NCBI GenBank assembly: GCA_009829735.1
Contig: CM020620.1
Location: forward strand, 2,793,447-2,857,446
Origin: Pyropia yezoensis
Taxonomy: Eukaryota; Rhodophyta; Bangiophyceae; Bangiales; Bangiaceae
Length of the DNA: 64,000 bases
Reading direction: 5' to 3'
Below are positions 41,163 through 62,283 of this stretch, in pieces. The notes beneath the pieces were generated by a model. It saw nothing but the letters and a program-made list of their open reading frames with translations, had not been told where the DNA came from and made no database searches. Position 1 is the stretch's first letter; each line of letters starts with the position of its first letter. The position numbers were made by a program, and so were the translations under genes.

Positions 41163-41180
41163 TGGTGGAGCAGCAGGGGA
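41163..41180 (+). promoter_or_regulatory. Element A primer binding site
   Basis: TGGTGGAGCAGCAGGGGA begins two bases after the 5' LTR. The identical 18 bases follow the 5' LTR of element B. It would pair with a tRNA ending in ...CTGCTGCTCCACCA. This is not the usual initiator-Met site, and the tRNA is not identified. Confidence 0.8.
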
Positions 41181-41284
41181 CAGAGGTAAACTTTTTTTTA
41201 CCTCCGGGTGCACCCGGGTGTAAGGGGCCCTCTGTCTCAGAGGAACGGTGGACTTGGACCGTGTCATACGAATCGTTAGCCAAC

Positions 41285-43231: not shown

Positions 43232-43806
43232 CCGTTGGAGCTGGCTGTCCTAAGCTCACAACGGCAGCCTCGGCCAAGCGGGTCAAGAGGACGAACCAAC
43301 CCTGCTGGATACTGCGCCGACCTAAGGGAGTCCGCCCACCTCGGGTAGGACTCCCCAAGAACGTAAATCCACGTCGGGTCATCGCGGTGCTGACGGGTGA
43401 GAACTTCCAGGTTGCTGGACGGGTGCAACTAGCCCCCGGCCGTGCCTGTTGTGCCCGTATCGTATTTGATACCGGTTCAGGAGCCTCCTTGATACGCAAG
43501 TCGCTATTACCCAAGGAGATGAAGCTCCAACGCTGGAGGTCTAAGGCCGACCATATGATTGACATCAATGGTGGGGTACTTCCCATTGTTGGTGCCGTGA
43601 CCCTACCAACTAGGTTGGGAACCCATGAGGTTGACGTGACCTATGGAGTAGTCGAGAATATATCGGTACCCCTGCTTCTGGGTACCCCTTATGTTGTAAC
43701 ACAAGTGCCTCTCATTTGTGGCCCTGAGTATTGGGTCAAGTTGATGAATGGGGAGACCATCCCCATCCTTGGTAAGGGAAAGTCTGTGGCTCCTGTGACA
43801 GTCTGA
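43228..43806 (+). CDS. Element A aspartic protease region
   Basis: Lies in the -1 frame relative to gag and overlaps it by ATGA, suggesting termination-reinitiation or frameshift expression. The catalytic signature DTGSGAS starts at 43468 in the context RIVFDTGSGASLIRKSLLP. LLLGTPYV near the end resembles the second retropepsin motif. It stops at TGA 43804-43806. The same frame continues immediately into RT, so this TGA is probably a nonsense change in a once-continuous pol. Confidence 0.85.
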   Translation: MTVGAGCPKLTTAASAKRVKRTNQPCWILRRPKGVRPPRVGLPKNVNPRRVIAVLTGENFQVAGRVQLAPGRACCARIVFDTGSGASLIRKSLLPKEMKLQRWRSKADHMIDINGGVLPIVGAVTLPTRLGTHEVDVTYGVVENISVPLLLGTPYVVTQVPLICGPEYWVKLMNGETIPILGKGKSVAPVTV

Positions 43807-43827
43807 CAGTCGAAGCCTGTTTGCTCT

Positions 43828-45704
43828 GTGAGAGAAGGGTTTACTGCTACCCTGCGTTTAGCCCGTAAAGTCACGTTGCCCCCCAACTCGGTGGCGCACG
43901 TTGACGTTGTAACTGATTATACGGGGAACGGGTTGGTGCACCCTCACCCCCGTCTTGCTCGCAAGCACCAAGTGCATGTTGCCCTTGGCACGATGGACTC
44001 CAAAGCCGGAGTCCCGTGGAGGATTCAGGTGATGAACCTGAGCTCTTCGCCCAAGTACTTCAAGTCGGGAGCCAAGTTCGGCTATATCGACCAACATGAG
44101 GGACCAGTAGTAGCGGTCACCCTCAACGCGGGCGTGAGTAGCGACCCGAAGTCCGGAAAGGAGAAGCACCAAGCCAAGCCGGCCGCCTCTCCTCGACCCC
44201 ATGTGAACATGGAGGGTGTTCCACCCAGGTTGTGGGTTCAAGTTGAATGCCTCTTGGACCAATATCACAAGTTGTGGGATGGTCAATTGGGACTCATGAG
44301 AGCCACCCAACACCGGATCGAGTTGAAACCTGGTGCACCCCCTATACGCCAACAACCGTACAGGGGAGGGCCCCGTTCAAGGGCCCTCGTCAAAAAGCAA
44401 GTCGCTCGCATGGAGGCTCTCGATGTGATTGAGGCCAGCAACGCAGAGTGGGCGAGTCCGGTGGTCATTGTCCCCAAAGTTGATGGGACCCCACGGTTCT
44501 GTATCGACTACCGTAAGCTCAAAGAGAACATGGTGAAGGGCATCTATCCCCTACCTAGGATGGACGACTGTCTGGACTCACTGGGGGAGGCAAACGTGTT
44601 CTCTACCCTAGGCTGTAACGCGGGGTATTGGCAAATTCCCATCGCCCCGGAAGACAGGCATAGAACTACCTTTATCTGTCACTGCGGTACCTACCAGTGC
44701 AAGCGACTACCGTTTGGACTATGCAACGCGCCGGCAACTTTCCAGCGCGCCATGGACATGATTCTGGCCGGAGTACGGTGGCAGATCTGTCTTGTGTACC
44801 TAGACGATATCATTGTGTTCTCCCGAAGTCCGGAGGAGCACATTGGCCATCTTGGCCAGGTGTTCAAGCTACTTGCTGATGCCGGTGTGTCACTGAAGGC
44901 GAGCAAGTGCCACCTCTTCACTCAGGAGGTGGAATACTTGGGACATGTTGTCCGTCCGGGGCGCCTCAGTGTCAATGAGAAGAATTTGGGGGCCATCCGT
45001 AAGGCTCAGTACCCCCGGACCCAGACCCAGATGAGGAGCTTCCTCGGGATGTGTAACGTGTACCGACGTTTCACCAAGGGCTTCGCCAAGGTGGCGAAGC
45101 CGCTGAACGAGCTAGTTAGTTCGACGCTACCGAAGAACCTGCCTCCCCCGAGTCAGGTGGAGCAGGAATCCTTTGTGATTCTTCGGGACCTACTGCTGAA
45201 GCCCCCTATCTTGGCTATTCCCAGGTTGGGAGGCCACTACATCGTAGACATGGATGCTAGCTACGACCAACTTGGTTGTGTGTTGCTTCAGCAGCAGCCG
45301 GACAAGGAGTACTTGCCGGTAGGATACTTCAGCAAGGGGCTGAACTCAGCTGAGAAGAACTATGGAGTCCCCGAGTTGGAAGGACTCGCAGTGGTGTGGG
45401 CGGTGACGTCACTTCGTCACTACCTAGAGGGTGAGAAGTTCCTCATCCGTTGTGACCACCGCGCGTTGCAGTTCATCTTCAAGACGGATTGCACGAACAC
45501 ACGCCTCAACAGGTGGAGGGTGCGACTGGCACCCTTCAGCTTTGATATTGAGTACCGACCTGGCAGGCAACATGCCCTTGCCGACGGCCTTTCTCGGGCA
45601 CCGACCGAGGGGCTGGACACTAACTCAGTCGATGAGGACATCCCCATCGTGGGGGTAGTCACGCACTCGTGTCAGACGTTGGACCCTTGTAGCAATATGG
45701 AGGA
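43828..45704 (+). pseudogene. pol: Element A reverse transcriptase and RNase H (cut by element B)
   Basis: Same frame as protease, from just after its TGA. RT signatures: FCIDYRKLKENMVKG, RLPFGLCNAPATFQRAMD and the catalytic YLDDIIVFSRS (at about 44797). RNase H follows with HYIVDMDASYDQLGCVLLQQ, YGVPELEGLAVVWAV and FLIRCDHRALQFIF. The frame would stop in the left LTR of element B at 45712. Element B is inserted here, between RNase H and integrase; the remainder resumes at 57548. Confidence 0.95.
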
Positions 45705-45709
45705 TGTGG

Positions 45710-45716
45710 TATAAAA
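45710..45716 (+). promoter_or_regulatory. Antisense TATA box in element B LTR
   Basis: TATAAAA lies six bases inside the LTR on the strand opposite to gag-pol. In the 3' LTR it faces the antisense frame that starts at 46460. It could therefore drive that gene, with transcription beginning near 45740. Position and orientation are observed; promoter activity is inferred. Confidence 0.35.
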
Positions 45717-45986
45717 CTCGATCCTCTCAGACACGTGTCAATATCCCTCGGGGGAATGGGACAGGTAACACAGAAAGGGGAACTACGAGAATGGTATGCC
45801 TGTTGCCTCACGTGCCTGCTCGCAGAGCAAACAGATTCGCACGGTAGTGCACACGGGGAAGAGGAAAGCAAACGCGCAGTTGTCTTTTTCTTGAGGGCGC
45901 GGGCCAAGTGCGCCTCGCTGTCCCTCTTAACGTGCATCTGGGGGAGCCTCGGCACGTTGGCCAGGTAGCCCCCCCATACCCCCGAG

Positions 45987-46026
45987 TGGCCCCGACCCGA
46001 GTCTAACCTCGTCAGGTCGGGGGCCA
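45987..46026. other. Hairpin in element B LTR
   Basis: TGGCCCCGACC pairs with GGTCGGGGGCCA (one bulged G) around a loop of ~17 bases. It is repeated in the other LTR at about 57259-57298. Possibly an RNA structure in R or U5. Confidence 0.6.
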
Positions 46027-46275
46027 CTATCACTACTAATTCTATTCCCACTCACTAATCTCACACTCAAATTCTCTCAAATCAAGTCCCTCACAAGTAT
46101 GCAAAAACCCATCAGCAATCCCTCTCTCACGTGTGGATAGCGTAGTCCACCGCATCCCAGTGCCGGGCACGGGCCACGGCCGCCAACCATCACCACACGG
46201 CGGGCGTGTTCTGGCACCTGGTGCCCTCTGGTTGTAGTCCCGGGTCGGCGCCAAGTCGGGGCCAGGGATGCTACA

Positions 46276-46292
46276 TAGCTCCCTCCCTAGTC
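46276..46292 (-). promoter_or_regulatory. Element B polypurine tract
   Basis: On the minus strand CTAGGGAGGGAGCTA abuts the 3' LTR, as expected for the plus-strand primer of an LTR retrotransposon. Confidence 0.6.
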
Positions 46293-46459
46293 CGGCACGT
46301 CCTCGGGCCGAACCAGGTGCCACCGTGCACAGCCTCGAGCACGTCCACACCGGTGCCGAGGTCGAGCGTCTTCACCCTGGTCACGATCACCTGCTCCGGT
46401 TCTCTGCCCCCCTTCTCTCCTTCACCTTGGCCCTCGCGTTCCCCCGGAGTCTGGACGTC

Positions 46460-48577
46460 ATGTCCAGTTCCGAGATCCAAGCTGGGCCCGTGGTTCCGGC
46501 GGCGAGTGTTGCGGAGGAGAACTCGGGTAGTCGCGCCCCTCTCCTGCCTCCGGTTCCTCGGGTGTCGATGTCGGCGCCGGTCGCCACGGCGGGGACGGAT
46601 CGGGTTCCCCCGGCTTCTGTGATGCACCCGGTCGAGACCCCCCCGGTGGGTCTCCCGGAGATGCTTCTTGGGCTGGACCCTCTGGCGGCCCGGCGTTACT
46701 CCACGGTGGTCGGCAACGCCGGCGCGGCCCAGTGCCAGCAGGATTGCTTGGACCTCTGGCGCAAGGAACTCCAGCGCGGGGTCTTGACAGAGATGGATAA
46801 GGCTCGTCTTCACACGGCGGACCAGATGCGCCTGGCACAAGACCGCTCCCAGAGCTTCTCGGGTTCCTCTTGGGTTGCTCGTCTGGAGGATCTCCCCTTC
46901 GCGCTAGTGCTGGATCTGCCCTTGACCGAGCGTCGCGTGTCCGCGTCCGTTCTCCGGTGGCCGGAGGAGGAAGGGTACGTCCACCGGGCGCTCAAGGTCT
47001 GGGACGAGGCGCTCAAGGGGTCGGGGAGCCTGAACTGCGACCCCCGTCCGAGCATGGTCGCTCTGGAGCCGCCTTTCCTGACCCGGAAGTACTCCAAGTT
47101 GTCACCGGCACGGGAGCAAGGCGAGCGACGCGGCCGTCAGCGTGACTTCCTCGTGAGCTGCAACCATCAGGAGTTCTGGAAGCTGGATAAGGCTAACCGG
47201 GCGGCGTACTACCCCAAGGTCATCCCGCAGCAGCAGGAAGTCGAGATCCCGGACGGGTTTGCTCCTTCCAGCATCCCCTTCACCTGGTACTTCTTGGACG
47301 CCTTGACTCAGGCGTCGATCAAGGGCTTCTTCCACTCGATCCCGTAAATGATGTACACGTCCGAGATGACAGTCTTGGCGGCCAACCACTGGCTTCACGA
47401 GGTCTTGGTGTCCAACCGGCTTTGGTTTCTCCCTGACCTCCTGATGGTCTGGATTGTCGACAAGTTGACCGTCGACTTCCTGTGCAGCCAGGACGAAGAG
47501 TACAAGGGGCTCTTCCAGGCGATGATTGACTTCCGGCGTCTGGTGCCGGTGCATGACCGGAACTTCTTGAACGCGATTGCCGACCAGAACCGCCCGCGTC
47601 GGGATGGCTTCGGTTGGGCGCAGGTGGTCTACCAGTCTTCTCCGGCCAAGGTGCAGCTGGCGACGCCGCTTCCGGCGTGGCCGCAGCTAGGTAGCTTTCC
47701 TGCCCCGGCCGCCCTTGATCTTCTGCCAGTTGGGCCGCCGGTGCAGGAGTCGGGATGGGCCGCGGCGGTCGGTCAGGCGTCTGCGGCGGCTCCGCTTCCT
47801 CCTGTTGCACCTGTCGCCCCGGTGGCCTCGCCTGAACCGTCGCCGGCGCGTTCACGCCCTGTTCCGGCTGTGCCGGTACTTTAAGCTCCTCCGGCACCGC
47901 GCCTGTCTGCGGCAAGTCTGGGGGTGACCGTGCGGTCGCCTACCACTCCGGCCGCCCCGCCTCGGACGCCTTCTTCCAACGCCGGCGGCGCTGTGCCTCC
48001 GCTGGAGTTGGGTACTCCGGCTTCGGGGGCCGTTGTGGACCGTCCGGTGGTGTCATCCTCGGGGCGGTTCGAGATTCCGGCGCCGACTCTGCGCCTTACC
48101 CGCTTCCGGGTGCCTGACTGGTACCTGAACCAAGGTGGCCCGACATGCGACCAGTACGACGTCGGTATGATTGAAGACCAGCTGGGTCGTCTTCCGGTGC
48201 AGGTTGAGGGCGTCGGGTCTTCCCTGGTGCTGGGCACTTACGCCAGCGTCTTGAACAACGTGGTTGACCGGGTGTTTGCTTGCGCGGACAGCGGCCAGAT
48301 GTCGAACAGCCCGGTGGTTGGCGAACTTCTGGCGACCTTGACGCGGCATGGCTTGGCCCAGCAGTGGTCAGAAACCTTCACTGGCTTCCAGGGGCGCCGA
48401 CGGGCATCTCTGGATGAGCGGGAGCCCCCGGCAACTACCGGTACTACTCCGATGGCGTCATACCGGGATGCACCGCGTCCACCGCACTGCGTCATCCCGT
48501 CTTCCTCCGGTTCCCGTCGTGCCGCGGAGGCAGCGCTGGAGGACACTCCCGCGGCTCAGCGTCCGCGCCGGGAGTAG
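46460..48577 (+). pseudogene. Element B antisense ORF (two in-frame stops)
   Basis: Runs opposite to gag-pol in the space between chromodomain and 3' LTR. From ATG 46460 a single frame of 706 codons ends at TAG 48575-48577, interrupted only by TAA at 47345-47347 and TAA at 47882-47884. The continuity in one frame shows it was one gene. Domains seen: Pro/Ser-rich N-terminus (~85 residues), a helical region (LWRKELQRG, VHRALKVWDEAL), then DFLVSCNHQEFW, YYPK and VEIPDGF, then WLHEVLVSNRLWFLPDLL, a Pro/Ala linker and a helical C-terminal segment (TYASVLNNVVDRVFACADSG). Each block has a colinear counterpart in the antisense frame of element A. No known family; not envelope-like, as no signal peptide or membrane segment is evident. 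Confidence 0.7.
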
Positions 48578-48722
48578 TAGTTGGAGGCAAGGAGGGTGAG
48601 GGTCTTGGGAGAAGCGAGGAGGGAAGAGGCGGAGAGAAGGGTTGCCCGAGCGGGTGCTTGTTTTCCTTGATTGTTCCATGCTTGTAATGCGTGTTCTCCT
48701 TGATATACCCGTTCCCTTCTTC

Positions 48723-51083
48723 TCAATCCTCTTGTTCCGCATCCGTTGCGGATGAACTCGGCTCGTCCCGAGGGTCTTGGTTGGCCCCATCCTCTTGGTC
48801 CTCCTCCGAGTCCGACTCCAGAATCTTGCCGGCTCTGGCCACTGGAGTGCCCTCCATCCCGTTCCGTCGCGTGTAGGCACAGACATCCGCGATGGGTAGC
48901 CGGTTTGAGGGTTCCCAGGTATCATCTGCCGGGTTAAAACCGAACCAGCGTACTCGCAGGTACAGGCGTCCGTCTCTCCAGGCATGGTCCACAAACTTGA
49001 CGTAGACATATTCCCGACCTTCTTCTTGGGATAGCCAGGGTACTGCGGCCCGCTTGCGCCGGGTCAAGTCCCGTTGGATTGGCGGTGGAGCTCGGGTGAC
49101 ATGGTTGCTGCTCACGCGGTACGGGGAGCCATCCACGTCTAGAAGAAAGGTCCAACCGTCCGTATTCAGGATCTCATAAGGTCCATCCGTCTTGGAGTCC
49201 AGCTTCCCCCGGGTCTTGCTATGGTTGTCCACAAAAACCCAGTCGCCACCACCCAGTTCCTTGTTCTTTTCCCGAACGCCCTTGTCATAGCCCCGCTTGT
49301 ATCGCTCCTGGGTCTTCGAGATTGACTCCTTGACTCTTGGGAGCAGGAGCTTCAGTTGTTCCAGGAACTCATCCTTTGCCTTGGGACCTGACTTCAGTGC
49401 AGGCTGGAGACCATCTGGTATTCTTTCCAGGGAGAAGTTGGTCAGCCGCCTTGGGGTGACAAAGTCGAGTGGAGCGACTCCCGTTGTCCGGTGAACTCGG
49501 GAGTTGTAGGCTAGAGTGAGGACAGCCAGGAGCTCGTCCCAGTCTTCTTGGTGCTCCTCCACGTAGTGCCGTAGCATGTCCACTAGGGTCCGGTTGAATC
49601 GTTCCACCTGGCCGTTCGTTTGAGGGTGGTGCGTCGTAGTGTACAAGTTCTTGATGCCCATCAGGTCACAGACTCCTTGGAAGAACAGGGATGCAAACTG
49701 GGGACCGTTGTCGATTAAGACGGAGTCTGGAGGGCCGTAGGCAGCTATCCAGTACTCGCAGAAGGCTGACGTGACATCCAGAGCCGTGATGGTCCTCAGC
49801 GGGATTGCTCGAGTGAACTTGGAGAACCGGTCACCAATGATGAGCAGGTATATGTTGCCTCTGGATGTTTCAGGTAGGGGCCCCAGGATGTCCATGCTTA
49901 AGCTTGCAAAGGGCTCCGCCGCAGGGAATAGGCGTAGCTTAGAAGTCTTCTTCCTCTGGGACAACCGGTTCCTTGCACACGAAACACAAGCCTCCAGGTA
50001 CTTATGGACGTCACTGGCCATGGTTTCCCAGTAATAGTGTCGTCTCATGGAAGCATACATCCGATTGATACCAGGATGTCCGGCCTGGGGAGACGAGTGC
50101 TCCAGGCGTAGGATGTCAGCTCGTAGGCCCCGGGGTACGTAGACTTGAGTGGCCCCATCGAAGGGTGACACCCGTACTAGGAGTCCGTCCGTAGACTCGG
50201 AGAAGCGACTGTTCCGGTTCAGGTCCATTTGGTGGCGAAGCTCCAAGCACTGAGGATCCGTCAGTTGTGCCTCCAGCATCCGGTGAATAGTCACCGGTTG
50301 ATCAGCTTCAGGCGTCTCATACAGGGGAGCATGCCAGCCACGTCCGACATTCGGGAGGATGAAGCAAGGTATTTCCTCCGGGATAGGACCGGTATCGGCT
50401 GCAGGAGTCTCCAGCCGGGACATGGTGTCGGCGCAGTGGTGCTCCCTCCCTGCTCTGGTGCACACCTTGTACTTGAACTCCGAAAGGCGTAGGCGCCACC
50501 GGGCGACCCTTCCTTGACTGCTGTCCATGCATAGCAGCCACCTTAGACTGGCGTGATCCGTCCGGATGAGGAACTCTTGTCCTTCAAGGTATGGCCGTAA
50601 CAGGAAGCAAGCCCAGACGACTGCCAAGCACTCGCGCTCCGTCGTGGAATAGTTCTTCTTGGCTGGAATCAAGACGCGACTGTAGTAGCCTATCGGGAGG
50701 AAGTGCCCATCAGGTTGCTGCTGGAGTAGTGAGCACCCCACCTGGACGCCACAGGCATCAGTCTCCAGAACAAACTGGCCCTCCCGCTTGGGTAACGCCA
50801 GTACTGGAGTGGTGGTCAGGCGCTTCTTTAGCTCTTCGAAGGCCGCGGTCTGCTTCTCGTCGAACACCGGGAGTTGTGCGGGAAGCTTCTTGCTGGTAAG
50901 CTTGGTCAATGGCCGGGCAATCAGAGCATAGTCCCGTACGAACCGGCGATAGACGTTGCACATACCCAGGAAGCTCTTGAGTTCCGTCTGGGTTTTGGGT
51001 TGCCGTGCATGCCGGAGGGCCTTGATGTTCTTCTCATTGACTCGGAGCTCCCCCGGACTCAGCACGTGCCCCAGATACTCCAC
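48723..51083 (-). CDS. pol: Element B RT C-terminus, RNase H, integrase and chromodomain
   Basis: 786 residues of open frame; it stays open a further ~110 bases upstream to the frameshift near 51190. RT thumb and connection (YLGHVLSPGELRVNEKN), RNase H (FVLETDACGVQVGCSLLQQ), integrase HHCC zinc domain (ending CVSCARNR), the D-D-35-E core (MDILGPL, LIDNGPQFAS, HPQTNGQVERFN, all catalytic residues present), then a GPY/F-like segment and a C-terminal chromodomain (YVYVKFVDHAW...LRVRWFGFNPADDTWEP) that would steer integration to modified chromatin. A Glu/Asp-rich tail ends at TGA 48723-48725. Integrase and chromodomain look fully functional. Confidence 0.95.
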   Translation of the reverse strand: MEYLGHVLSPGELRVNEKNIKALRHARQPKTQTELKSFLGMCNVYRRFVRDYALIARPLTKLTSKKLPAQLPVFDEKQTAAFEELKKRLTTTPVLALPKREGQFVLETDACGVQVGCSLLQQQPDGHFLPIGYYSRVLIPAKKNYSTTERECLAVVWACFLLRPYLEGQEFLIRTDHASLRWLLCMDSSQGRVARWRLRLSEFKYKVCTRAGREHHCADTMSRLETPAADTGPIPEEIPCFILPNVGRGWHAPLYETPEADQPVTIHRMLEAQLTDPQCLELRHQMDLNRNSRFSESTDGLLVRVSPFDGATQVYVPRGLRADILRLEHSSPQAGHPGINRMYASMRRHYYWETMASDVHKYLEACVSCARNRLSQRKKTSKLRLFPAAEPFASLSMDILGPLPETSRGNIYLLIIGDRFSKFTRAIPLRTITALDVTSAFCEYWIAAYGPPDSVLIDNGPQFASLFFQGVCDLMGIKNLYTTTHHPQTNGQVERFNRTLVDMLRHYVEEHQEDWDELLAVLTLAYNSRVHRTTGVAPLDFVTPRRLTNFSLERIPDGLQPALKSGPKAKDEFLEQLKLLLPRVKESISKTQERYKRGYDKGVREKNKELGGGDWVFVDNHSKTRGKLDSKTDGPYEILNTDGWTFLLDVDGSPYRVSSNHVTRAPPPIQRDLTRRKRAAVPWLSQEEGREYVYVKFVDHAWRDGRLYLRVRWFGFNPADDTWEPSNRLPIADVCAYTRRNGMEGTPVARAGKILESDSEEDQEDGANQDPRDEPSSSATDAEQED

Positions 51084-51090
51084 CTCAGTC

Positions 51091-51945
51091 TCAAACAGGT
51101 GGCACTTTTCGGCCTTGAGGGTAACTCCAGCCTTGGACAGGAGGGCCAGGACCTCCCGAAGGTGCTCCAGGTGTTCCGCTGGGGTCTTGGAGAAAAACGA
51201 TAATGTCGTCCAGGTAGACCAAACATGTTCTCCACCTTAGCCCGGACAGGATGGTGTCGATGGCTCTTTGGAAGGTTGCCGGAGCATTGGTGAGACCAAA
51301 AGGAAGACGCTTGCACCGGAATAGTCCCAGGTGGCACGTGAAGGTGGTCTTGTCCTTGTCCTCGTCAGCCAGAGGGATCTGCCAGTAACCGGCATTACAA
51401 TCCAGTGTCGAGAAGAGGGTGGCATCAACAAGAAAGTCGAGGCAATCATCCATCCGGGGTATCGGGTATACGTCCTTGACTGTCATCTCGTTCAGGCGCC
51501 GGTAGTCAACGCAGAAACGGAAGTGACCGCCGGTTTTCGGGACGACTACCACCGGGAAAGCCCACTCGCCATCAGACGGCTCGATAACATCCATCTTGAG
51601 CATTTTGTTAACCTGCTTCTCAATCTCATCCCGGCGATGAGGTCCGGCCCGATATGGTTGTATGTGCACTGGCTTAGCTTCTGGCTTGAGTTGAATCCGG
51701 TGTAGAGTGGCGTCCATCTTGCCCAGCTCTCCCGACCACAGGTGCCGATATTCCTGGAGAAGCTTCTCCAGTGCCTCCTTCAAGTCGGGAGGGACATTTT
51801 CTTGCTTGACCTTCGGCATCCCGGGTGGTGCTTGTTCGGGTTTCGGAGTAGCGCTGCCAGCCTGCTCTTGTTTCGGAGGTACGTCTAAGGCCGTCAAGTT
51901 GGATGCCAGTTCTTGTTGCAGGTTCAGGAGGTCTTCCTTGCTCAT
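51091..51945 (-). CDS. pol: Element B reverse transcriptase N-terminal half (frameshift)
   Basis: Contains the RT fingers and palm: LHRIQLKPEAKPVH, FRFCVDYRRLNEMTVKD, RLPFGLTNAPATFQRA and the catalytic YLDDIIVF at about 51195-51218. Immediately after, a run of five T (minus strand, near 51190) puts the frame out. With four T the sequence would continue into the next segment. This is either a sequencing error or a fresh inactivating indel. The upstream part of this frame (51700-51945) is a Lys/Glu/Pro-rich linker from protease. Confidence 0.9.
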   Translation of the reverse strand: MSKEDLLNLQQELASNLTALDVPPKQEQAGSATPKPEQAPPGMPKVKQENVPPDLKEALEKLLQEYRHLWSGELGKMDATLHRIQLKPEAKPVHIQPYRAGPHRRDEIEKQVNKMLKMDVIEPSDGEWAFPVVVVPKTGGHFRFCVDYRRLNEMTVKDVYPIPRMDDCLDFLVDATLFSTLDCNAGYWQIPLADEDKDKTTFTCHLGLFRCKRLPFGLTNAPATFQRAIDTILSGLRWRTCLVYLDDIIVFLQDPSGTPGAPSGGPGPPVQGWSYPQGRKVPPV

Positions 51946-52601
51946 AGCACGGGCGGATCCCCGGTAAGGCTCTGCTGTACCAACTCGGGTGCCCTTGGCG
52001 AGGGATATGGCTTCCGGCTCACGTTGACGATGAGCACCGGGAACGGGGTGTGCCTTTCTACCTTCTTGTGATGTCCGTGGGCCAAGTATAACCGGTGTTT
52101 CGCCAGAAATCCCTTACGTCCGTAGATCAGGCATTGACCTGCAATCCGGGTCGTTACTTGAACCTTGGTCTCCGAGCGAGGAGGTAGGAGCACCGGTTTG
52201 AAGAGAGTCAAGGTAGAGGGTGGGATGCGTTCCCTCTTGCTCTTGGCTACACGAACCTTGGCGTCCAGATGCTCCAATACCGGTGACACAAACCCATGGT
52301 TGAACTGGACCTTCCCTTCTCCGGGTAGGATGCTCTTGACATGCTGCTTCTGGAAGTCCCAGCCTAGGATGAGGGGACTGATAGGGTCTTGACTACTAGA
52401 AAGGGAAAAAGCATTGGTTCATTGTTGACATAGATGGCGACAGGAAGACGGCCAAGCGGTCGTAGGGTTTGACCCGAAGCGTCGACGATATGGGTCCGGG
52501 TAGGCGCTCTCCAGGCATGTCGACGCCAGCCCGGAGGTAACAGGTTCTCAGTGATGACGCTTGGTCCGGCTCCCGTGTCAACCACCGGCGTAACAGCTTG
52601 G
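51946..52601 (-). pseudogene. Element B protease region (frameshifts)
   Basis: Protease signature VVDTGAGPSVITENLLP lies at about 52540-52590 in one frame. It is preceded in another frame by KINARMRVGDSLPK (the usual beta strand), so a one-base shift separates them. A second frame then carries the protease-RT linker (LFKPVLLPPRSETKVQ), which aligns with the start of pol in element A. At least two frame breaks lie within ~600 bases. Confidence 0.75.
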
Positions 52602-54297
52602 GGAGGCTATCCCCCACACGCATACGAGCATTAATCTTGAGGTTTTCTTTACGCAGGACGAGCAATGTCCCCTTGAACAAACAGGGTGTCCAGGCGGCTA
52701 CCGGTTGAGCGGGTAACTGCCGTCCTTTCTCCCGGCAGCAAGGGGAGAACAGGTAGAAGTACCCTGCCGTCGGAGATTCGGGAAGACACTTGGGGAGAGC
52801 GCCTGCCCTACTCGTTTCCCGGGTCCGAGGAGTCCTTAGAGGTTTCGGTCTCCAGGTCAAAGTCCGTAGGAGCTTCCCTTGCCAAAGCCTCCGTGATGCT
52901 CTGTAAGGTTGCCACTCGGATTGCGTGTACCTGTGCCTGGTCCATCTTGGAGGGTGCTCGCCGGTCAGCCCAGTTGACCGCCTTTGCAAACACCAGTCCT
53001 TGACGCTTGAGTTTCTCCTTGAGGTCCTTGGGAATGGTCGGGCACTGGTAGGACATGTGATCCTCCTTCTGGCACAGCCAACAAGACTGGAACCGCTGGT
53101 TCTTGACTTGCTTGGGGGCGACCAGGGATGGTTTGCTCCTTAGAAATGAAGCCGCCCCACTTGACCCCTGACCCCACGGGTGAGGCCTCGCCAATTGCGA
53201 GTACCGGTACAGGGCTATCACCTCCCTTGTACTTGTCGGGTCCGGAACGAACTCGCGACAACGGCTTGGGAGTTGATACCATGGGAGCTTGGAGGGCCCT
53301 GGCTTGCCGGTACTTGCCCTGGGTGTAGGCCATTAACTGCTGGAAGGTATGTTCTTGATGTTCCTGGTTGTAGTTCTCCGCATCCACTTGAAGATATTCA
53401 GGAAGCCCTTCCGAGAAGATCATCTTGAGCCTTTCCTCAGGGTAAACGTTGCCACAAGCATCGCTCATCTCCCGTACACGACGGGCGAACGCCTCTGGAG
53501 TCTCTTGTCTTTCCATGGTTGCCCGGTTCAGCCTGCCGACTGCTTTACGCAGAGAGTCCGCGTCAGCGTAGTTGGACAGGAGCCAGTTGACCGCTCGGAT
53601 AACTCGACGGTACGTCCGACAATGTGTCCGGCAGAGTCTGGTAGAACCTGTGCAAACCGCTGTTCCGCTTCTCCGGTCATGAAGTTAACCAGGAGGTAGA
53701 GAGCCTTGCCCTCGGACACATCGTTGTCATTGCATGCCTTGACAAACCGGCGCAGGAAGGCAAAGATAAGCGCCGGTCTCTTCCCGGAAAACTTAGGATG
53801 TCCCCCGAAGCTCGGCTGCATTCGCCGGTTCAGGGACGCCATCTTCTTGGCCATCTTCCGGGTGTAACCTTGGTCTTGGTTCTCCAGCCGGTAGTTACCC
53901 CAATACTTGACCTTGTTCAGGGTGGCATCTCCCACTTGTGGGCAGGGAAGTCAAACTCGACTAGCCTGCGCCGGGTGGGACCGGGAGATGCATCCCAATC
54001 ATATCCCTCCTCAGAGCTGGAGGAACTGGTCTCGCTGGTGCTAGAGCGACGGCGATGACGCCGACGCCTTCGGCTGCTCCGGTTACCGGTCTTGGAGCTC
54101 CCCGCCCATAGGATGCAAGGGGAGGAAAAAGCTTGGCCGGTCCCAGAAGTCAAGGTCTCAGGGACACCCGTAGAACCAGTCACAACGGTGCCTCTGGCAT
54201 CGCTAGTGCCCACAGGAGGGGGTGTATATACCCAGCTGCCATGTGTGGTCCAGGAGTAAACACACCAGGGGCTATCCCTGGAGGTTGAGGAGTAGAA
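52602..54297 (-). other. Duplicated, error-rich copy of gag 3' part next to gap
   Basis: This ~1.7-kb stretch repeats 54798-56497 almost base for base (for example GAGGCTATCCCCCACACGCA starts both). It contains several one- to three-base indels that break the gag frame (near 53600, 53930, 54100). It abuts exactly 500 N. The pattern is that of an unmerged, less-polished contig end rather than a biological duplication. The intact copy is on the other side of the gap. Confidence 0.8.
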
Positions 54298-54797
54298 NNN
54301 NNNNNNNNNNNNNNNNNNNNNNNNNNNNNNNNNNNNNNNNNNNNNNNNNNNNNNNNNNNNNNNNNNNNNNNNNNNNNNNNNNNNNNNNNNNNNNNNNNNN
54401 NNNNNNNNNNNNNNNNNNNNNNNNNNNNNNNNNNNNNNNNNNNNNNNNNNNNNNNNNNNNNNNNNNNNNNNNNNNNNNNNNNNNNNNNNNNNNNNNNNNN
54501 NNNNNNNNNNNNNNNNNNNNNNNNNNNNNNNNNNNNNNNNNNNNNNNNNNNNNNNNNNNNNNNNNNNNNNNNNNNNNNNNNNNNNNNNNNNNNNNNNNNN
54601 NNNNNNNNNNNNNNNNNNNNNNNNNNNNNNNNNNNNNNNNNNNNNNNNNNNNNNNNNNNNNNNNNNNNNNNNNNNNNNNNNNNNNNNNNNNNNNNNNNNN
54701 NNNNNNNNNNNNNNNNNNNNNNNNNNNNNNNNNNNNNNNNNNNNNNNNNNNNNNNNNNNNNNNNNNNNNNNNNNNNNNNNNNNNNNNNNNNNNNNNN
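54298..54797. other. Assembly gap (500 N)
   Basis: Exactly 500 undetermined bases, a conventional placeholder length. Both sides carry the same sequence, so the true gap is probably zero or negative. Confidence 1.
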
Positions 54798-55003
54798 GAG
54801 GCTATCCCCCACACGCATACGAGCATTAATCTTGAGGTTTTCTTTACGCAGGACGAGCAATGTCCCCTTGAACAAACAGGGTGTCCAGGCGGCTACCGGT
54901 TGAGCGGGTAACTGCCGTCCTTTCTCCCGGCAAGCAAGGGGAGAACAGGTAGAAGTACCCTGCCGTCGGAGATTCGGGAAGACACTTGGGGAGAGCGCCT
55001 GCC

Positions 55004-56764
55004 CTACTCGTTTCCCGGGTCCGAGGAGTCCTTAGAGGTTTCGGTCTCCAGGTCAAAGTCCGTAGGAGCTTCCCTTGCCAAAGCCTCCGTGATGCTCTGT
55101 AAGGTTGCCACTCGGATTGCGTGTACCTGTGCCTGGTCCATCTTGGAGGGTGCTCGCCGGTCAGCCCAGTTGACCGCCTTTGCAAACACCAGTCCTTGAC
55201 GCTTGAGTTTCTCCTTGAGGTCCTTGGGAATGGTCGGGCACTGGTAGGACATGTGATCCTCCTTCTGGCACAGCCAACAAGACTGGAACCGCTGGTTCTT
55301 GACTTGCTTGGGGGCGACCAGGGATGGTTGCTCCTTAGAAATGAAGCCGCCCCACTTGACCCCTGACCCCACGGGTGAGGCCTCGCCAATTGCGAGTACC
55401 GGTACAGGGCTATCACCTCCCTTGTACTTGTCGGGTCCGGAACGAACTCGCGACAACGGCTTGGGAGTTGATACCATGGGAGCTTGGAGGGCCCTGGCTT
55501 GCCGGTACTTGCCCTGGGTGTAGGCCATTAACTGCTGGAAGGTATGTTCTTGATGTTCCTGGTTGTAGTTCTCCGCATCCACTTGAAGATATTCAGGAAG
55601 CCCTTCCGAGAAGATCATCTTGAGCCTTTCCTCAGGGTAAACGTTGCCACAAGCATCGCTCATCTCCCGTACACGACGGGCGAACGCCTCTGGAGTCTCT
55701 TGTCTTTCCATGGTTGCCCGGTTCAGCCTGCCGACTGCTTTACGCAGAGAGTCCGCGTCAGCGTAGTTGGACAGGAGCCAGTTGACCGCCTCCGGATAAC
55801 TCGCGACGGTACGTCCGACAATGTGTCCGGCAGAGTCTGGTAGAACCTGTGCAAACCGCTGTTCCGCTTCTCCGGTCATGAAGTTAACCAGGAGGTAGAG
55901 AGCCTTGCCCTCGGACACATCGTTGTCATTGCATGCCTTGACAAACCGGCGCAGGAAGGCAAAGATAAGCGCCGGTCTCTTCCCGGAAAACTTAGGATGT
56001 CCCCCGAAGCTCGGCTGCATTCGCCGGTTCAGGGACGCCATCTTCTTGGCCATCTTCCGGGTGTAACCTTGGTCTTGGTTCTCCAGCCGGTAGTTACCCC
56101 AATACTTGACCTTGTTCAGGGTGGCATCTCCCACTTGGTGGGCAGGGAAGTCAAACTCGACTAGCCTGCGCCGGGTGGGACCGGGAGATGCATCCCAATC
56201 ATATCCCTCCTCAGAGCTGGAGGAACTGGTCTCGCTGGTGCTAGAGCGACGGCGATGACGCCGACGCCTTCGGCTGCTCCGGTTACCGGTCTTGGAGCTC
56301 CCCGCCCCATAGGATGCAAGGGGAGGAAAAGCTTGGCCGGTCCCAGAAGTCAAGGTCTCAGGGACACCCGTAGAACCAGTCACAACGGTGCCTCTGGCAT
56401 CGCTAGTGCCCACAGGAGGGGGTGTATATACCCAGCTGCCATGTGTGGGTCCAGGAGTAAACACACCAGGGGCTATCCCTGGAGGTTGAGGAGTAGAACC
56501 GACAGGAGGGAGACGTCTGCTGCGAGCGGACTCAAACGCCGTTGACCCCGGGGTGGCTCCCACAGGAGGAACAGCCGGAGGAACGGGAGCAGGTGGTACT
56601 TGGCCGCCTGTGGACTCCAGTCCGCTACCGGATGTCACACCCAGGTCTGCTTCACCCGTAGGGAGAACGCCGGGTTTGGCACCGTCCCCCGCGGTGACCA
56701 GGGGTGCGTCAAGGGACGCGGGGTCTACCCCTTCGGGCACCGTCGTGCCAGGGAGGGTAGCCAT
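55004..56764 (-). CDS. gag: Element B gag polyprotein
   Basis: Start at ATG 56764 (MATLPGTTVPEG), the first ATG after the PBS. 586 residues, intact. The N-terminal ~210 residues are Pro/Gly/Thr-rich and include an Arg/Ser/His-rich basic patch. The capsid region (FAFLRRFVKACNDNDVSEG, EAFARRVREMSDACG) matches Retrotrans_gag and the equivalent region of element A. The zinc knuckle CWLCQKEDHMSYQC (CX2CX4HX4C) is near 55275. An acidic tail ends SSDPGNE. Confidence 0.95.
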   Translation of the reverse strand: MATLPGTTVPEGVDPASLDAPLVTAGDGAKPGVLPTGEADLGVTSGSGLESTGGQVPPAPVPPAVPPVGATPGSTAFESARSRRLPPVGSTPQPPGIAPGVFTPGPTHGSWVYTPPPVGTSDARGTVVTGSTGVPETLTSGTGQAFPPLASYGAGSSKTGNRSSRRRRRHRRRSSTSETSSSSSEEGYDWDASPGPTRRRLVEFDFPAHQVGDATLNKVKYWGNYRLENQDQGYTRKMAKKMASLNRRMQPSFGGHPKFSGKRPALIFAFLRRFVKACNDNDVSEGKALYLLVNFMTGEAEQRFAQVLPDSAGHIVGRTVASYPEAVNWLLSNYADADSLRKAVGRLNRATMERQETPEAFARRVREMSDACGNVYPEERLKMIFSEGLPEYLQVDAENYNQEHQEHTFQQLMAYTQGKYRQARALQAPMVSTPKPLSRVRSGPDKYKGGDSPVPVLAIGEASPVGSGVKWGGFISKEQPSLVAPKQVKNQRFQSCWLCQKEDHMSYQCPTIPKDLKEKLKRQGLVFAKAVNWADRRAPSKMDQAQVHAIRVATLQSITEALAREAPTDFDLETETSKDSSDPGNE

Positions 56765-56954
56765 GTTGGTCTCTTGACAGCCACAGTCCAGTTGCCTGCG
56801 TGTCCAAAGATCGCCAGACCACAAGAGAGGGGTTGGAGAGCCAGGAATGGGATTCCCGTGAACGGGTGCAAATAATTCCCAAACCACAGAAAAAGACAGA
56901 ACAGGAACAACCCAACCGCTGCTCCCAAATGTCTTTTCTCAAACACTCCAACCA

Positions 56955-56972
56955 TCCCCTGCTGCTCCACCA
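56955..56972 (-). promoter_or_regulatory. Element B primer binding site
   Basis: On the minus strand TGGTGGAGCAGCAGGGGA, four bases after the 5' LTR. Identical over 18 bases to the PBS of element A. Confidence 0.8.
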
Positions 56973-56976
56973 AATA

Positions 56977-57547
56977 TGTGGTATAAAACTCGATCCTCTC
57001 AGACACGTGTCAATATCCCTCGGGGGAAAGGGACAGGTAACACAGAAAGGGGAACTACGAGAATGGTATGCCTGTTGCCTCACGTGCCTGCTCGCAGAGC
57101 AAACAGATACGCACGGTAGTGCACACGGGGAAGAGGAAAGCAAACGCGCAGTTGTCTTTTTCCTGAGGGCGCGGGCCAAGGGCGCCTCGCTGTCCCTCTT
57201 AACGTGCATCTGGGGGAGCCTCGGCACGTTGGCCAGGTAGCCCCCCCATACCCCCGAGTGGCCCCGACCCGAGTCTAACCTCGTCAGGTCGGGGGCCACT
57301 ATCACTACTAATTCTATTCCCACTCACTAATCTCACACTCAAATTCTCTCAAATCAAGTCCCTCACAAGTATGCAAAAACCCATCAGCAATCCCTCTCTC
57401 ACGTGTGGGTAGCGTAGTCCACCGCATCCCAGTGCCGGGCACGGGCCACGGCCGCCAACCATCACCACACGGCGGGCGTGTTCTGGCACCTGGTGCCCTC
57501 TGGTTGTAGTCCCGGGTCGGCGCCAAGTCGGGGCCAGGGATGCTACA
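56977..57547 (-). repeat. Element B 5' LTR
   Basis: 571 bp. Five differences by eye from the left copy (for example GGGAAAGGG versus GGGAATGGG and GTGTGGGTAG versus GTGTGGATAG). Confidence 0.95.
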
Positions 57548-59424
57548 GATGACCGTATTGTGACCCTAATATAGGGGGACTACTTCTAACCCTTAACTTT
57601 CAATTTGGGAGTCCGTATCGGTCACGGTACCTATAAGTTACGTATGACCAGAGGGACTTGCATCTTGGGGTGGAGGGTAGTTAGTAGTGTCACCAAGGGT
57701 TTATAACGAGGGAGCCGGTGGCGAATCCACCGCCGGCCATGGTAGAACGACAAACCCCTTCCATTTGGGCTCCCGTCTTGGTCCCGTGGCTTGCGCTCCA
57801 AGGACAGCAACCTTGGCCTCCCGGTGACGTTGATGCCGATCCCCCTTGGTGAGTGTTCCCTGAGAGTGGACGTGCAGCGGATACCTATTGTGCTACAAAC
57901 CTGAGGCGCCGGGGAACAAGAAGAACTTGCCCCTGTCCCTGGACGAGGTGGTGAAGGCCCAGATCGAGGACTCCTTCTGCAATTCGCAGAGGGATACACT
58001 GTATACGGTGGCGGAGACGCGGTTCTTCATCGGAGACGATAGCCTTCTCTTGAGGAGGGGGTGATTCAGGGGACCGAACAACTTGTCGTCCCCGCATCCC
58101 TCAAGGACAGTATCCTTGAGAGGGAGCATAACGCTCCCACAGGTGGACACCTGGGGTCTATTAAACTGTGCCAGACCCTAAGGACCAGGTACTACTGGCC
58201 GTCCATGGTGGTGGACATCTACAGTTGGGTGGCTGCCTGCACAAGTTGTGCGCAGATCCGTCTGATGGAACGGCGGCCTACTACGGCTATGTTACTGTTC
58301 CCGGCCAAGGAGCCCTTTGCCGCGCTGGCAATGGACATCCTTGGGCCCCTGCCAGTAACCGAGGAGGGCAACCAGTACCTCCTGGTTATCTGTGACCACT
58401 TCACGAAACTTACGAGAGCGATCCCACTGGCAGAGATCACGGCCATGTCGGTCGTGTCAGCCTTCCTAGATCACTGGGTTGCCGCTAATGGCATCCCGGA
58501 CAGTACACTATGGGAAAATGGACCGCAATCTGCGTCCGTACTGTTTCAGGGAGTGCTGGATGTGTTGGGGGTTCAGGCAAACTATGCCACCCCCTACCAC
58601 CCACAAACTAATTGGTAGGTGGAGCGCTTCAACAAAACTGTTGTTCGGCAGCTGCGCCACTATGTGAGTGAGCACGTGAAAACGTGGGACCAATACATTC
58701 CTATTCTTACGACTGCCTACAATTCGCAGGGTCACTCATCTACCGGGGAAGTACCCCTCGCGTTTGTGACCCCCCGTCGCGTGCGGTCTATTGCCGTACG
58801 ACGGCCGCTCCCAACTAGGGAGGCCGATGGCAGTATACCTACTCCCACTGAGAGTAAGGCGGAGTTCGCTGCTAGGCTCGAAAAACTCATCCCTAAAGTC
58901 AGGGCTGAGATGGACGAAGCGCAGAAGCGCTACAAGCGTACTTTTGACAAAAAGGTGAGTAACGCCAAGCACGTCCCCGAGCAGGGTGACTGGGTACTGG
59001 CTCACTCACACACCCCAACTGGGGGTAAGTTGGTGTTCCAGACGAAGGGGCCATACCAGGTCCTTCGTACAGATGGACGGCGGTTCACCATCGAAAGTGA
59101 CGATGGGATCCGCACCGTAACTGTACAGGACGCGGTAAAAGTTGCACCACCTCCTGCAGGCGACCCGGCTTGGGCGCGTGCGCTGAAAGCGTGGCGCCTG
59201 CCTTCGCTACCTGCGGCCAAACAGGGCCCGCAGGAGTACGTGTTCGATAAGTTCATCGACCACGGGTGGGATGAGGACACAAACCGCGTCATGTTGAGGG
59301 TGCGTTGGCTCGGCTACACGGCCAAGGATGATACGTGGTAATACGTGGAGGACCTTCCCGCTGAGAAGGTCCAGGCATACTGCACCCGGAATGACATCGA
59401 TCCTAACTGCCCTCCCTCAACGTG
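57548..59424 (+). pseudogene. pol: Element A integrase and chromodomain (dead)
   Basis: Continuation of element A pol after the insertion. 57548-58060 is decayed RNase H-integrase linker with several stops; a frameshift at ~58060 joins QIEDSFCNSQRDTLYTVAE to the integrase frame. Integrase HHCC domain is present (CTSCAQIR). The catalytic core has MDILGPL, but the second Asp is Glu (LWENGPQSAS, Glu at 58514-58516). NGQVER reads N-W-TAG-V-E-R (TAG 58616-58618). After it the frame resumes with VERFNKTVVRQL and a chromodomain (YVFDKFIDHGW...LRVRWLGYTAKDDTW), cut by TAA 59339-59341. Catalytically inactive. Confidence 0.9.
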
Positions 59425-59536
59425 AGGGAAGGCCAAGTGACAGTGCCAAGAGAGTGCTTCAAGTCGAAGTGGTACGCAGAGTGGCTTTTAACTACAGCCC
59501 TAACCCACACACTCTCACGACAAAGGCAGCTGCCAA

Positions 59537-61479
59537 CTAGGCACGCATGCTAGACTCCCCAACACCACGGCCCTCGCCCTCACGTGGAGGCGAGCGGCGA
59601 GACCCACGCCGATAACGTTCCCCACCCGTCGGCGGGGGCAGCGGCTCCAAGTCGGAACCGTCGCGCCCCTCACGGTCGCGCAAGTGGCGACGACCGCGGC
59701 TACTCTTCTGCTTGGTCTTGCGCGCAAGCTGGCAACGCAGACGCCGGACCGACTCCGTCTCCGACGGGGTAGAAGACTCCGAGACGGAATAAGACAACTC
59801 GTCTTCCGACACGGAGGGAGAGCGCCGCGAGTAACGGCGACGACGGCGAGGAGGCGAGTATGCCCGGCTCGCCCGACGCTTGCCACGCCCAAGTGGGGCT
59901 GGCTGGGGCACAATTGACCCAATACGAGCCAACTCGGACGTCATAAACCCCGCTACCGACTCGCAACTCGCGGTCGCCACAACAGTACGAACGCGCTCCT
60001 CAAGTTGAGGAGTCTCGGAAACTTGAAGGGTTGCAGTCGACGCGGCCAACCAAGAAATGATGCGCACCAAGGTGGTGATCATCATTCCTGAGGTCAAGGG
60101 CGTGGCCGGCAATACCAACTAGGGATAGACCGTCAGGAGGGTGGCCCCCAAGTTGGGGGACAACGGGGAGGACTACTCAACGGCGACGCTTATCGGGATG
60201 TCCCCGTGCGGCTGGAAAGGGACAGGAGGAAGCGGAGGGGCTCGCCGAGTAGGCGGAGCCCGAGAGTAACTGCGACCCCTACTCGGGGCCCCCGATTTGG
60301 GTTGAGTCATGTAGTCATCGTGAGAGGGCACAGCCATCACGATTGTCTTCTCCGGTGGAGGCGCAGTGTGGCGATCCACCGCCGGGGCATACGAATAGTC
60401 CCCGATGCCCAACCCCTCTCGAAGTACCGCACGGCCGTCGTGAAGTTCACGACCGACCCAGACGAACTGGCGAAGTGTGCAATCGTCCTTGGGCCCGCGG
60501 GAGGAGCGGCGCAACTTGTGCTCGATGCTCTCCTACTCGATGAGGTTATGGAGGCGCAGCATCTCCTCAAGTAGAGTGAGCTGTCCTGATGAGCACCCCT
60601 CAGCATCTCGCTGAGGGGTGAGCTGTTCCAAACCTTGGATAAGCCGGGGGGCGAGATGCCAGAGCATCCCCCGCAGCTGAAAACAAGACACCCAGGTCGA
60701 CATGACGTCGAGGAGCCACTGGGTTGCCAACATGGTAAACACCAGGTGGTCCGAGCTAGCCGCCAACCTGGCGGAGCCGAAGTGATCGAGCAACCGAGGA
60801 AGTAAAGCCGGAAACCCGTAGGGGACCTCGACTTGGGGCCACCACTCGGGCTTCTTGGGATAGTACTGCTCCTTGCTAGCAGCGGACTGCTGCGGAAACT
60901 CGAGTTGAGCCGAGGTCACGAAGTAGGGACCTCGCCGGAAGTCCTTCTCCATCCGCACATCAAAGTGATGGGTGTGCGGATCGGCTTCGCGAAGGTACGG
61001 GGGGCGAGTTGCCACCGCGTCCCAAGTGAAGGTCGGCACGTCGCCGGCGCCCGGGATAGTAACCCCGCGGTCCACCATGGCCTTGGCCCGCTGCACGTCC
61101 TCGACCTCGTCCTCATCCAGGAAGGCAAACTGGTCCGTCCTGAAGTCGGGAGGAAACCCGACCCTACGGGGAACGTCTCCCGTAGGCGGTCCCATACACG
61201 ACTCATCGCTGTGCCAAGTCTGCCACAGCGGAGAACAGTCAACCCCTCCTCATACAGAGGCCAAGCGGGGTAAAACCACCGCCCCAAGGCCTCCCGTGGG
61301 ATAACGCGGCCCGTCTCCGGGGGAGATCCCGCCGCCAACCCAAAGCCGGGTGACGCCGGAGCCCCATCCCCCGGAGCGATCGCGAAGCCCCCGCCGGAAG
61401 TCCCGGCGGGCGCTGCGTAGTAGGACGTGTCCTCCATACGTTCATGCAGGGAGTCAGTCTCCACCCCCGGGGTCAGCAT
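59537..61479 (-). pseudogene. Element A antisense ORF (frameshift and three stops)
   Basis: Opposite to gag-pol and in the same place as the antisense frame of element B. It starts at ATG 61479 (MLTPGVETDSLHER). A frameshift in 61150-61200 leads to a frame that is otherwise continuous to 59537, broken by three TAG codons (60533-60535, 60173-60175, 60119-60121). Matches to element B, in order: DFRRGPYFVTSAQLEF, EQYYPKKP and VEVPYGF (B: DFLVSCNHQEF, YYPK, VEIPDGF), FTMLATQWLLDV (B: MTVLAANHWLHEV), LRQFVWVGREL (B: FRRLVPVHDRN) and TTLVRIISWLAASTATLQVSE (B: SVLNNVVDRVFACADSGQMSN). The C-terminus adds an Arg/Ser-rich basic tail. Role unknown. Confidence 0.7.
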
Positions 61480-61796
61480 GGCTCTCCCCAAGTTAGGGAG
61501 AGACGACCTGGTTGCAGTCGCACGAGACCCACCTCGAGTTCAGGGGGGCCTGGATCGCGGGTAGATGGGTGGTCTCCCCTGCGTGGGGCGGCCAAGGGTA
61601 AGGTGAAGAGGATGTGTTGGTGGTGGTGAGGTGAGAGCCGATAAGAGCAAGCTGCCAAGTGGGCAAGTTTGAGGAGAGGGGCGGTCAACGTGACCGCCTC
61701 CACGTCCACGTGACGTACCAGGGGGACAGCAAGTCGCGCCCCCAACGCCGCGATGTGCATTTCTACGCCCCCTCGCAGGGCCGACCGGGTCGGTCG

Positions 61797-61814
61797 GAAC
61801 TGAGGAGAGGGGAG
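61797..61814 (+). promoter_or_regulatory. Element A polypurine tract
   Basis: GAACTGAGGAGAGGGGAG directly abuts the 3' LTR. Confidence 0.75.
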
Positions 61815-62283
61815 TGAGGCAGTATTGACACCCAGGTGGGGGGGCAACACGTGCCATGCAAGGGGCCGCAGGCCACTAGCCTGACCCGTTCCTCCCCCTG
61901 CTTTCGGGTCCATATTCTGTACGTTTGGGATAGTTAGCTTAGTAGTAAATCCAACTTGGATTTGAGGGTTTTCTGCATTTATCGTCTTGAATTTTCGTGT
62001 GGCCCGGTGGGCAGGTGCTGGGGTGGGAGATTCTGAGTGGCGAGATTCTGAGGGGACCCCGGGGGGATAAGGGGAGGGACAGCGGGGCTTGGCCTTGCTT
62101 CCCCGTCCCGACCAAGAAACTGTTGGCCCACACACCATCTTCTTGTTTGTCAGTGGGGGGATTGCCCCACAACAGGGACAGAGTGTGTGCGACTTGCACT
62201 TCTTCCGGTTCCCCCGACACGAAAGGCAGCCCTTGCGCACCGCCCCAACTTGGGTGTCGCGTGTGCGAGTGGTTTTTGCCACA
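61815..62283 (+). repeat. Element A 3' LTR
   Basis: 469 bp, starts TGAGGCAGTATTGAC and ends TTTTTGCCACA, followed at once by the CAATG duplication. Confidence 0.95.

What the first reader, a model, noticed from the sequence alone, without database searches (positions are those of the whole stretch)
46460..61479. Conserved antisense gene in the env position of two different chromoviruses
Elements A and B each carry a ~650-700-codon reading frame on the strand opposite to gag-pol, between chromodomain and 3' LTR (59537-61479 minus in A; 46460-48577 plus in B). The two proteins are colinear over most of their length with shared blocks (YYPK plus VE-P-GF, FxMLAxxWLxxV, and an [ST]xLxxxxxxxxA-S helix) but are strongly diverged. 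In both, a single frame persists across stops, so each was one long protein gene. An antisense protein kept in two subfamilies implies selection. It does not look like an envelope protein. Candidate roles are regulation of transposition, host-defence evasion or particle assembly.
Basis: partly seen in the sequence, partly recalled or inferred. Interest (0 to 1): 0.87.

Follow-up and report, generated by a model that had tools for sequence, protein, structure and literature searches.

The report
Antisense accessory gene of algal retrotransposons
Three related families of jumping genes in this alga each carry an extra protein gene on the opposite DNA strand, and selection has kept that protein, so the elements evidently need it although nobody knows what it does.

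Summary
Both window copies are broken, but the genome gives at least 150 matches to the A antisense gene and 133 to the B gene, many with long open frames. In 56 of 58 sampled copies the gene is convergent with pol, and in 57 of 58 it lies behind the 3' LTR.

Selection acts on the antisense frame: one pair of A copies shows 56 synonymous and 10 nonsynonymous changes, dN/dS 0.06, like the end of sense pol in the same pair (0.08). B gives 0.32.

A and B are homologous only over a core. A third family, C, has the gene in the same place and bridges them. By integrase A, B and C form one clade; six sampled elements outside it lack the gene.

The protein matches no Pfam family and no protein beyond near-identical copies. 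Antisense genes at this position are known in plant Retand, Grande and RIRE2; their TRP28 domain was not found here. A new protein family of a known architectural kind; a regulatory role is inferred.

The parts
40692..62283 (+). Element A, Ty3/gypsy-type LTR retrotransposon (LTRs 40692-41160 and 61815-62283; CAATG at 40687-40691 and 62284-62288), interrupted by element B
   Evidence: LTR repeat 98.3%; sequence read; RT and RNase H by Pfam
59537..61479 (-). A antisense gene, window copy, interrupted by in-frame stops and a frame change; open relatives encode 647 aa
60536..61195 (-). Stop-free stretch of the A antisense gene holding most of the conserved core, used as query
   Evidence: alignment
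45705..57547 (-). Element B, Ty3/gypsy-type LTR retrotransposon nested in A (LTRs 45705-46275 and 56976-57547; flanks GAGGA and GATGA); holds an assembly gap
   Evidence: LTR repeat 99.1%; RT, RNase H, integrase, sub-threshold chromodomain
46460..48577 (+). B antisense gene, window copy, interrupted by in-frame stops; open relatives encode 705 aa
47057..47278 (+). Part of the B core that the A protein hits by tblastn (E 8e-4, 31%)
48723..51083 (-). B pol frame (RNase H, integrase, weak chromodomain), convergent with the B antisense gene
58061..59341 (+). A pol, integrase to chromodomain part (two pieces), convergent with the A antisense gene
   Evidence: downstream position tested

Best explanation
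It is a true accessory protein gene of one clade of Ty3/gypsy elements, read from the strand opposite to gag-pol, starting just inside the 3' LTR and running convergently towards the end of pol. Shown here: the gene occurs in three families, in the same place and orientation in nearly every copy sampled; its reading frame is under purifying selection; its core is homologous between the families; and the integrase branching fits inheritance together with pol. Inferred: an antisense transcript that starts in or beside the 3' LTR is translated into a soluble protein of about 640-705 residues that acts in trans, most likely in the nucleus, as a regulator of the element's expression, export or integration, as has been proposed for the plant Retand and Grande antisense proteins. 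I put about 0.95 on a translated, selected gene of one origin and about 0.4 on the regulatory role in particular; the confidence given is for the statement as a whole.
For: At least 150 A, 133 B and 70 C matches in the genome. Convergent pol end in 26 of 28 A and 30 of 30 B loci, LTR upstream in 27 of 28 and 30 of 30. dN/dS 0.06 (56 synonymous, 10 nonsynonymous, Fisher 9e-25) for L039-L045 and 0.13-0.14 for L047 and L004 against L045; B 0.32 over all pairs of 30; C 0.35, p 6e-7. End of sense pol 0.08 in the pair L039-L045. Core similarity above shuffles for all three family pairs. Integrase tree: A, B, C together at 100/100. Gag and the antisense core are about equally diverged between A and B (27% and 23%).
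Against: No transcript, peptide or localisation data. The regulatory role rests on analogy alone. The A copies include many broken ones. L069 in family C gives 0.55, p 0.06, and the very close pair L044-L045 gives 0.88 on 16 changes. No NLS-like basic run was found in B; only A has one (C was not scanned for it). TRP28, the domain on which the plant proposal rests, was not found.
Confidence: 0.55

Rival explanations
1. It is a particle-associated or structural protein: a second Gag-like subunit made from an antisense message and packed with the element RNA.
For: It evolves about as fast as gag between A and B. A has an arginine-rich tail that could bind RNA. The poor models are mostly helical.
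Against: Cores of A and B do not resemble the gag or pol of either element above shuffles, the highest z being 1.8. The arginine-rich run is in A only of the two scanned. The models have mean pLDDT 30 and 31 and prove nothing.
Confidence: 0.15
2. It is a protein with which the element counters host silencing, for example small-RNA or chromatin silencing.
For: The genome holds one Piwi-domain protein (E 1e-75), so such a defence may exist. Convergent transcription could make double-stranded RNA that the element would have to withstand (inference).
Against: No sequence similarity to any known suppressor or other family was found. Constraint is strong and even along A (0.06-0.21), with no sign looked for or seen of the fast change expected in an arms race.
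Confidence: 0.2
3. The antisense RNA, not the protein, matters: it controls copy number by pairing with the sense RNA, as antisense RNAs of yeast Ty1 do, and the frame is a by-product.
For: Antisense RNAs limit Ty1 (passages of PMC12786077). A Piwi-domain protein is present.
Against: Synonymous sites change many times faster than nonsynonymous ones, in one frame only, apart from the complementary frame that shares its third positions and is full of stops. The stops of pol and of the antisense gene do not overlap. An RNA role could exist besides the protein.
Confidence: 0.05
4. Chance frame in GC-rich DNA, or a separate insertion caught in these copies.
For: The gene is 64-65% GC, which favours long frames, and nested insertions occur here, element B being one.
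Against: Same position, strand and core in three families, and selection on the frame. Capture of a host gene long ago is not excluded, because the genome search scores only the best candidates.
Confidence: 0.02

Closest known systems
Antisense additional ORFs between pol and 3' LTR (aORF-3R) of plant Ty3/gypsy elements: Retand, Grande gene23, RIRE2, PvRetro13 (PMC7264820, PMC11963269)
   Same: Position, opposite strand, presence in many copies of a family, conservation like the other element proteins, large element of about 10 kb
   Different: Retand is a non-chromovirus lineage of flowering plants and carries TRP28 (PF04195); here no TRP28 match in the proteins or in the genome, and the elements lie in an alga and end in a weak chromodomain
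Antisense ORF of the fungal element Boty (named in PMC7264820)
   Same: Antisense, between pol and 3' LTR, outside plants
Antisense genes of deltaretroviruses such as HBZ of HTLV-1 (named in PMC11963269)
   Same: Antisense protein gene near the 3' LTR with a regulatory role in the virus
   Different: Not compared by sequence; an analogy for how it may work only
Envelope-like genes of LTR elements
   Same: Placed after pol
   Different: Those are sense and encode transmembrane proteins; this is antisense with no membrane-like stretch

Membership tests
aORF-3R class (antisense extra ORF of LTR retrotransposons) | Lies between pol and 3' LTR on the strand opposite to gag-pol | tested here: met
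   Pol end convergent in 56 of 58 loci, LTR upstream in 57 of 58
aORF-3R class (antisense extra ORF of LTR retrotransposons) | Present in most copies and conserved like other element proteins | tested here: met
   150, 133 and 70 matches (capped lists, lower bounds, share of all copies unknown); dN/dS 0.06 against 0.08 for the pol end in one pair
aORF-3R class (antisense extra ORF of LTR retrotransposons) | Antisense transcription from an own promoter, nuclear protein (Grande) | not testable with these tools
   No expression or localisation data
Retand TRP28 antisense proteins | TRP28 / Transposase_28 domain (PF04195) | tested here: not met
   No match in A, B, C proteins nor at E up to 10 in the whole genome; a relation beyond the reach of profiles is not excluded
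Envelope-like gene | Sense orientation after pol | tested here: not met
   Antisense
Envelope-like gene | Transmembrane segment or signal peptide | tested here: not met
   Highest Kyte-Doolittle mean over 19 residues 1.32, 1.54, 1.53 in A, B, C; no dedicated predictor was run
Chromovirus | Chromodomain at the end of integrase | tested here: inconclusive
   PF00385 scores 23.6 (A relative), 20.5 (B) and 18.5 (C) against a cut-off of 25.1; other elements of the genome reach 66.5
Ty3/gypsy LTR retrotransposon | LTRs, target duplication, RT and RNase H before integrase | tested here: met
   perfect 5-base duplication for A, one mismatch for B

The most novel reading that the evidence does not exclude
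A protein superfamily unknown so far, gained once by the ancestor of one retrotransposon clade of this alga and kept ever since as an antisense gene, by which the element disarms host silencing or controls its own transcription in trans. Plants and algae would then use unrelated antisense proteins at the same spot.
Probability: 0.3. Interest if true: 0.8.

Novelty: new variant of a known kind. Interest (0 to 1): 0.6.

Why it matters
Antisense genes behind pol are known from flowering plants and fungi, with their function unknown. Here the same arrangement turns up in an alga with a protein that matches none of them, in hundreds of copies, many nearly identical and therefore recent, and with constraint as strong as on the end of pol. 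If the proteins are truly unrelated, the site itself, perhaps a promoter reading inward from the 3' LTR, would seem to suit a separately timed regulator. Recent open copies make the old question of what such proteins do directly testable by RNA-seq, proteomics and localisation.

Tried and rejected
Dropped readings. (1) A Harbinger-type transposase frame in L062 as another antisense gene: it lies beyond the point (1143) where two other copies of the element diverge. (2) Relation to TRP28: no profile match; the conserved positions published for TRP28 are not matched in spacing, by eye. (4) A longer start of the B frame reaching into the LTR: dN/dS of the 64 codons upstream is 0.96, but indels disturb that ungapped comparison, so it supports the ATG at 46461 only weakly. 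(5) Fold comparison: both models too poor, so no fold search was made. (6) No relatives in IMG/VR. PDB rows were at chance level (best E 0.035; none for the three-family profile). (7) PHROGs: no family for A and B.

Limits. The genome search scores only the best 69-150 candidates, so copy numbers are lower bounds and well-kept copies are favoured. In two of the three protein searches only the 8000 or 7999 candidates sharing most words were scored; family C was not searched there, the cap being used. The six elements without the gene belong to about three families.

Full report
What is in the window. Element A (40692-62283, + strand) has LTRs of 469 bases, 98.3% alike, flanked by CAATG. Element B (45705-57547, - strand) sits inside A's pol, with LTRs 99.1% alike and flanks GAGGA and GATGA. 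Pfam finds RT and RNase H in both, a zinc knuckle in A gag, integrase in B and a sub-threshold chromodomain in B; relatives of A and C give sub-threshold chromodomains too. A and B share 61% identity in RT over 221 aa, 52% in integrase over 183 aa and 27% in gag over 380 aa. Between the end of pol and the 3' LTR each carries a long frame on the other strand. In the window these frames are broken by stops, and in A by a frame change as well.

The gene is open elsewhere. The window lies in a genome of 107.5 Mb in 11 contigs. A search with the stop-free part of the A gene lists 150 matches, the 150 scored of 2280 candidates; by recount of its rows, 117 of 150 have a frame of at least 720 codons and no stop in the match. 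The B search lists 133 of 1681 candidates; by recount 98 of 133 rows have a frame of at least 747 codons and no stop in the match. Both lists are ranked by similarity and so favour well-kept copies. Among loci read in full, 9 of 28 A and 21 of 30 B have the whole frame open; the A loci were partly chosen for variety, and each set includes the window copy.

Place and orientation. In 26 of 28 A loci and 30 of 30 B loci the end of pol follows convergently on the other strand; in 27 of 28 and 30 of 30 the LTR lies upstream as in the window. The misses are L003 and L058 (no pol end found) and L008 (no LTR). The stop codons of pol and of the antisense gene are about 110 bases apart in A and 145 in the window B copy, so the genes do not overlap and constraint on the antisense frame is not a shadow of a sense gene.

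Selection. By Nei-Gojobori counts, L039 against L045 gives 56 synonymous and 10 nonsynonymous differences, dN 0.007, dS 0.122, ratio 0.06, Fisher 9e-25; L047-L045 gives 0.13 and L004-L045 0.14. Eleven older copies against L045 give a pooled ratio of 0.20; the other frames give 1.16 to 2.35, except the complementary frame '-1' at 0.31, which has about 30 stop sites per pair. Among those old copies the ratio is 0.33, as expected if dead copies drift. Very close pairs are noisy: L044-L045 gives 0.88 on 4 and 12 changes. The 30 B loci give 0.32 over all pairs, the other frames 0.94 to 1.40 and the '-1' frame 0.38. In the pair L039-L045 the end of sense pol gives 0.08 on 13 and 4 changes, so the antisense gene is held about as tightly as that part of pol. 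By region the ratio is 0.06 to 0.21 in A (six pairs) and 0.11 to 0.53 in B.

Homology and a third family. BLASTP of open A against open B gives E 5e-8, 23% over 166 residues; hhalign gives probability 64% and E 6.7e-5 on nearly single-sequence profiles. The core scores 96 against 33.7 +/- 5.4 for shuffles, 0 of 500 reaching it. YYPK-x7-VE[VI]P-x-GF occurs once in each. Following integrase zinc-finger hits, I read four 3' regions that proved to be one further family, C. L068 has an antisense frame of 638 residues convergent with pol, hit by A at E 2e-36 (36% over 281 residues) and by B at E 2.7e-5. L070 gives E 3e-39 and 2e-6; its frame changes near residue 462. L067 and L069 lack parts of the gene. 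A genome search with the L068 protein gives 70 matches, 65 spanning residues 1-638 and 59 without stops (my count). L068 against L070 has a ratio of 0.35 on 48 and 46 changes, p 6e-7; L067 0.32, p 4e-5; L069 0.55, p 0.06, not significant. Core against core: A-C z 53, B-C z 14.7, A-B z 12.5, none of 1000 shuffles reaching any; A-C also align in the middle part (z 7.8); B-C and A-B do not, and the N-terminal and C-terminal parts of all pairs do not (z at most 0.7).

History. Six elements with a chromodomain above the cut-off were read downstream of it. tblastn finds no antisense relative in them, apart from a 30-residue piece of an A gene in L061, beside an A-type LTR and gag. Their integrases are 26-33% identical to those of A, B and C. 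In an integrase tree of 10 rows A, B and two C rows stand together at 100/100, with B outside A+C; the other six, about three families, stand on the other side. The root and the small sample allow a gain in this clade or a loss outside it, and the tool marks the A row as a long branch. The order (B,(A,C)) agrees with the core similarities. The simplest account is one gain before A, B and C split and inheritance with pol since.

What the protein is. Pfam gives no family for whole A, B and C at E up to 10, and for pieces only DUF641 at E 0.09 on the A tail, below its cut-off. PHROGs gives none for A and B, the PDB nothing convincing. Three searches of 5.8 billion proteins return only P0001 for A (96% identical, found twice) and P0002 for B (98%). 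IMG/VR gives none. The AlphaFold models have mean pLDDT 30 and 31 and are unusable. No stretch looks like a membrane segment. Of A and B only A has an arginine-rich run. The cores do not resemble the elements' own gag or pol.

Comparison with what is known. [quoted passage not shown] In Retand, 97% of the clusters encode a TRP28 domain antisense to pol, and DNA binding and a regulatory role are proposed (PMC11963269, passages and the first part of section 11 read). The architecture here is the same; the protein is not shown to be. PF04195 was found neither in the proteins nor in the genome. Seven searches of the open paper library listed no paper on antisense genes of red-algal LTR elements; beyond the two papers above and passages of PMC12786077 I saw listings only, and subscription papers are not covered.

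How it most likely works. An RNA starting in or beside the 3' LTR, opposite to gag-pol, is translated into a soluble protein that helps the element, most likely as a nuclear regulator. Promoter, translation, location and partner are all inferred. The host has one Piwi-domain protein by this search, so convergent transcription could feed silencing, and a counter to silencing is a fair rival. The RNA-only reading fails on the codon evidence.

Noticed in passing
52603-54297 and 54798-56498: A 1.7-kb stretch of B (gag region) is present twice, 99.4% alike, around a run of 500 N (54298-54797); probably an assembly artefact.
   Followed up: no
19678-20156: Another run of N in the window.
   Followed up: no
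L062:1532-2854 (minus): Open 441-codon frame with a DDE_Tnp_4 domain (E 1e-19), a Harbinger-like transposase gene lying beyond the end of a chromodomain element.
   Followed up: partly
L067, L069: Family C copies with deletions inside the antisense gene while the read part of pol stays open, possibly non-essential in cis.
   Followed up: no
G000:C3:5004889-5005788: The only Piwi-domain match in the genome (E 1e-75), in a 959-codon open frame.
   Followed up: no
36000-36443: Tandem array with a 12-base period; the searched region began at 36000, so it may reach further left.
   Followed up: no
62696-62909 and 63146-63359: Two direct copies, 74% alike, 450 bases apart, just outside element A.
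   Followed up: no
45705-45720; L014, L010, L027, L025: Read in the antisense direction, the B LTR begins with a TATAAAA-like sequence, present in all four aligned copies; not seen by eye at that place in A. A possible antisense promoter, untested.
   Followed up: no
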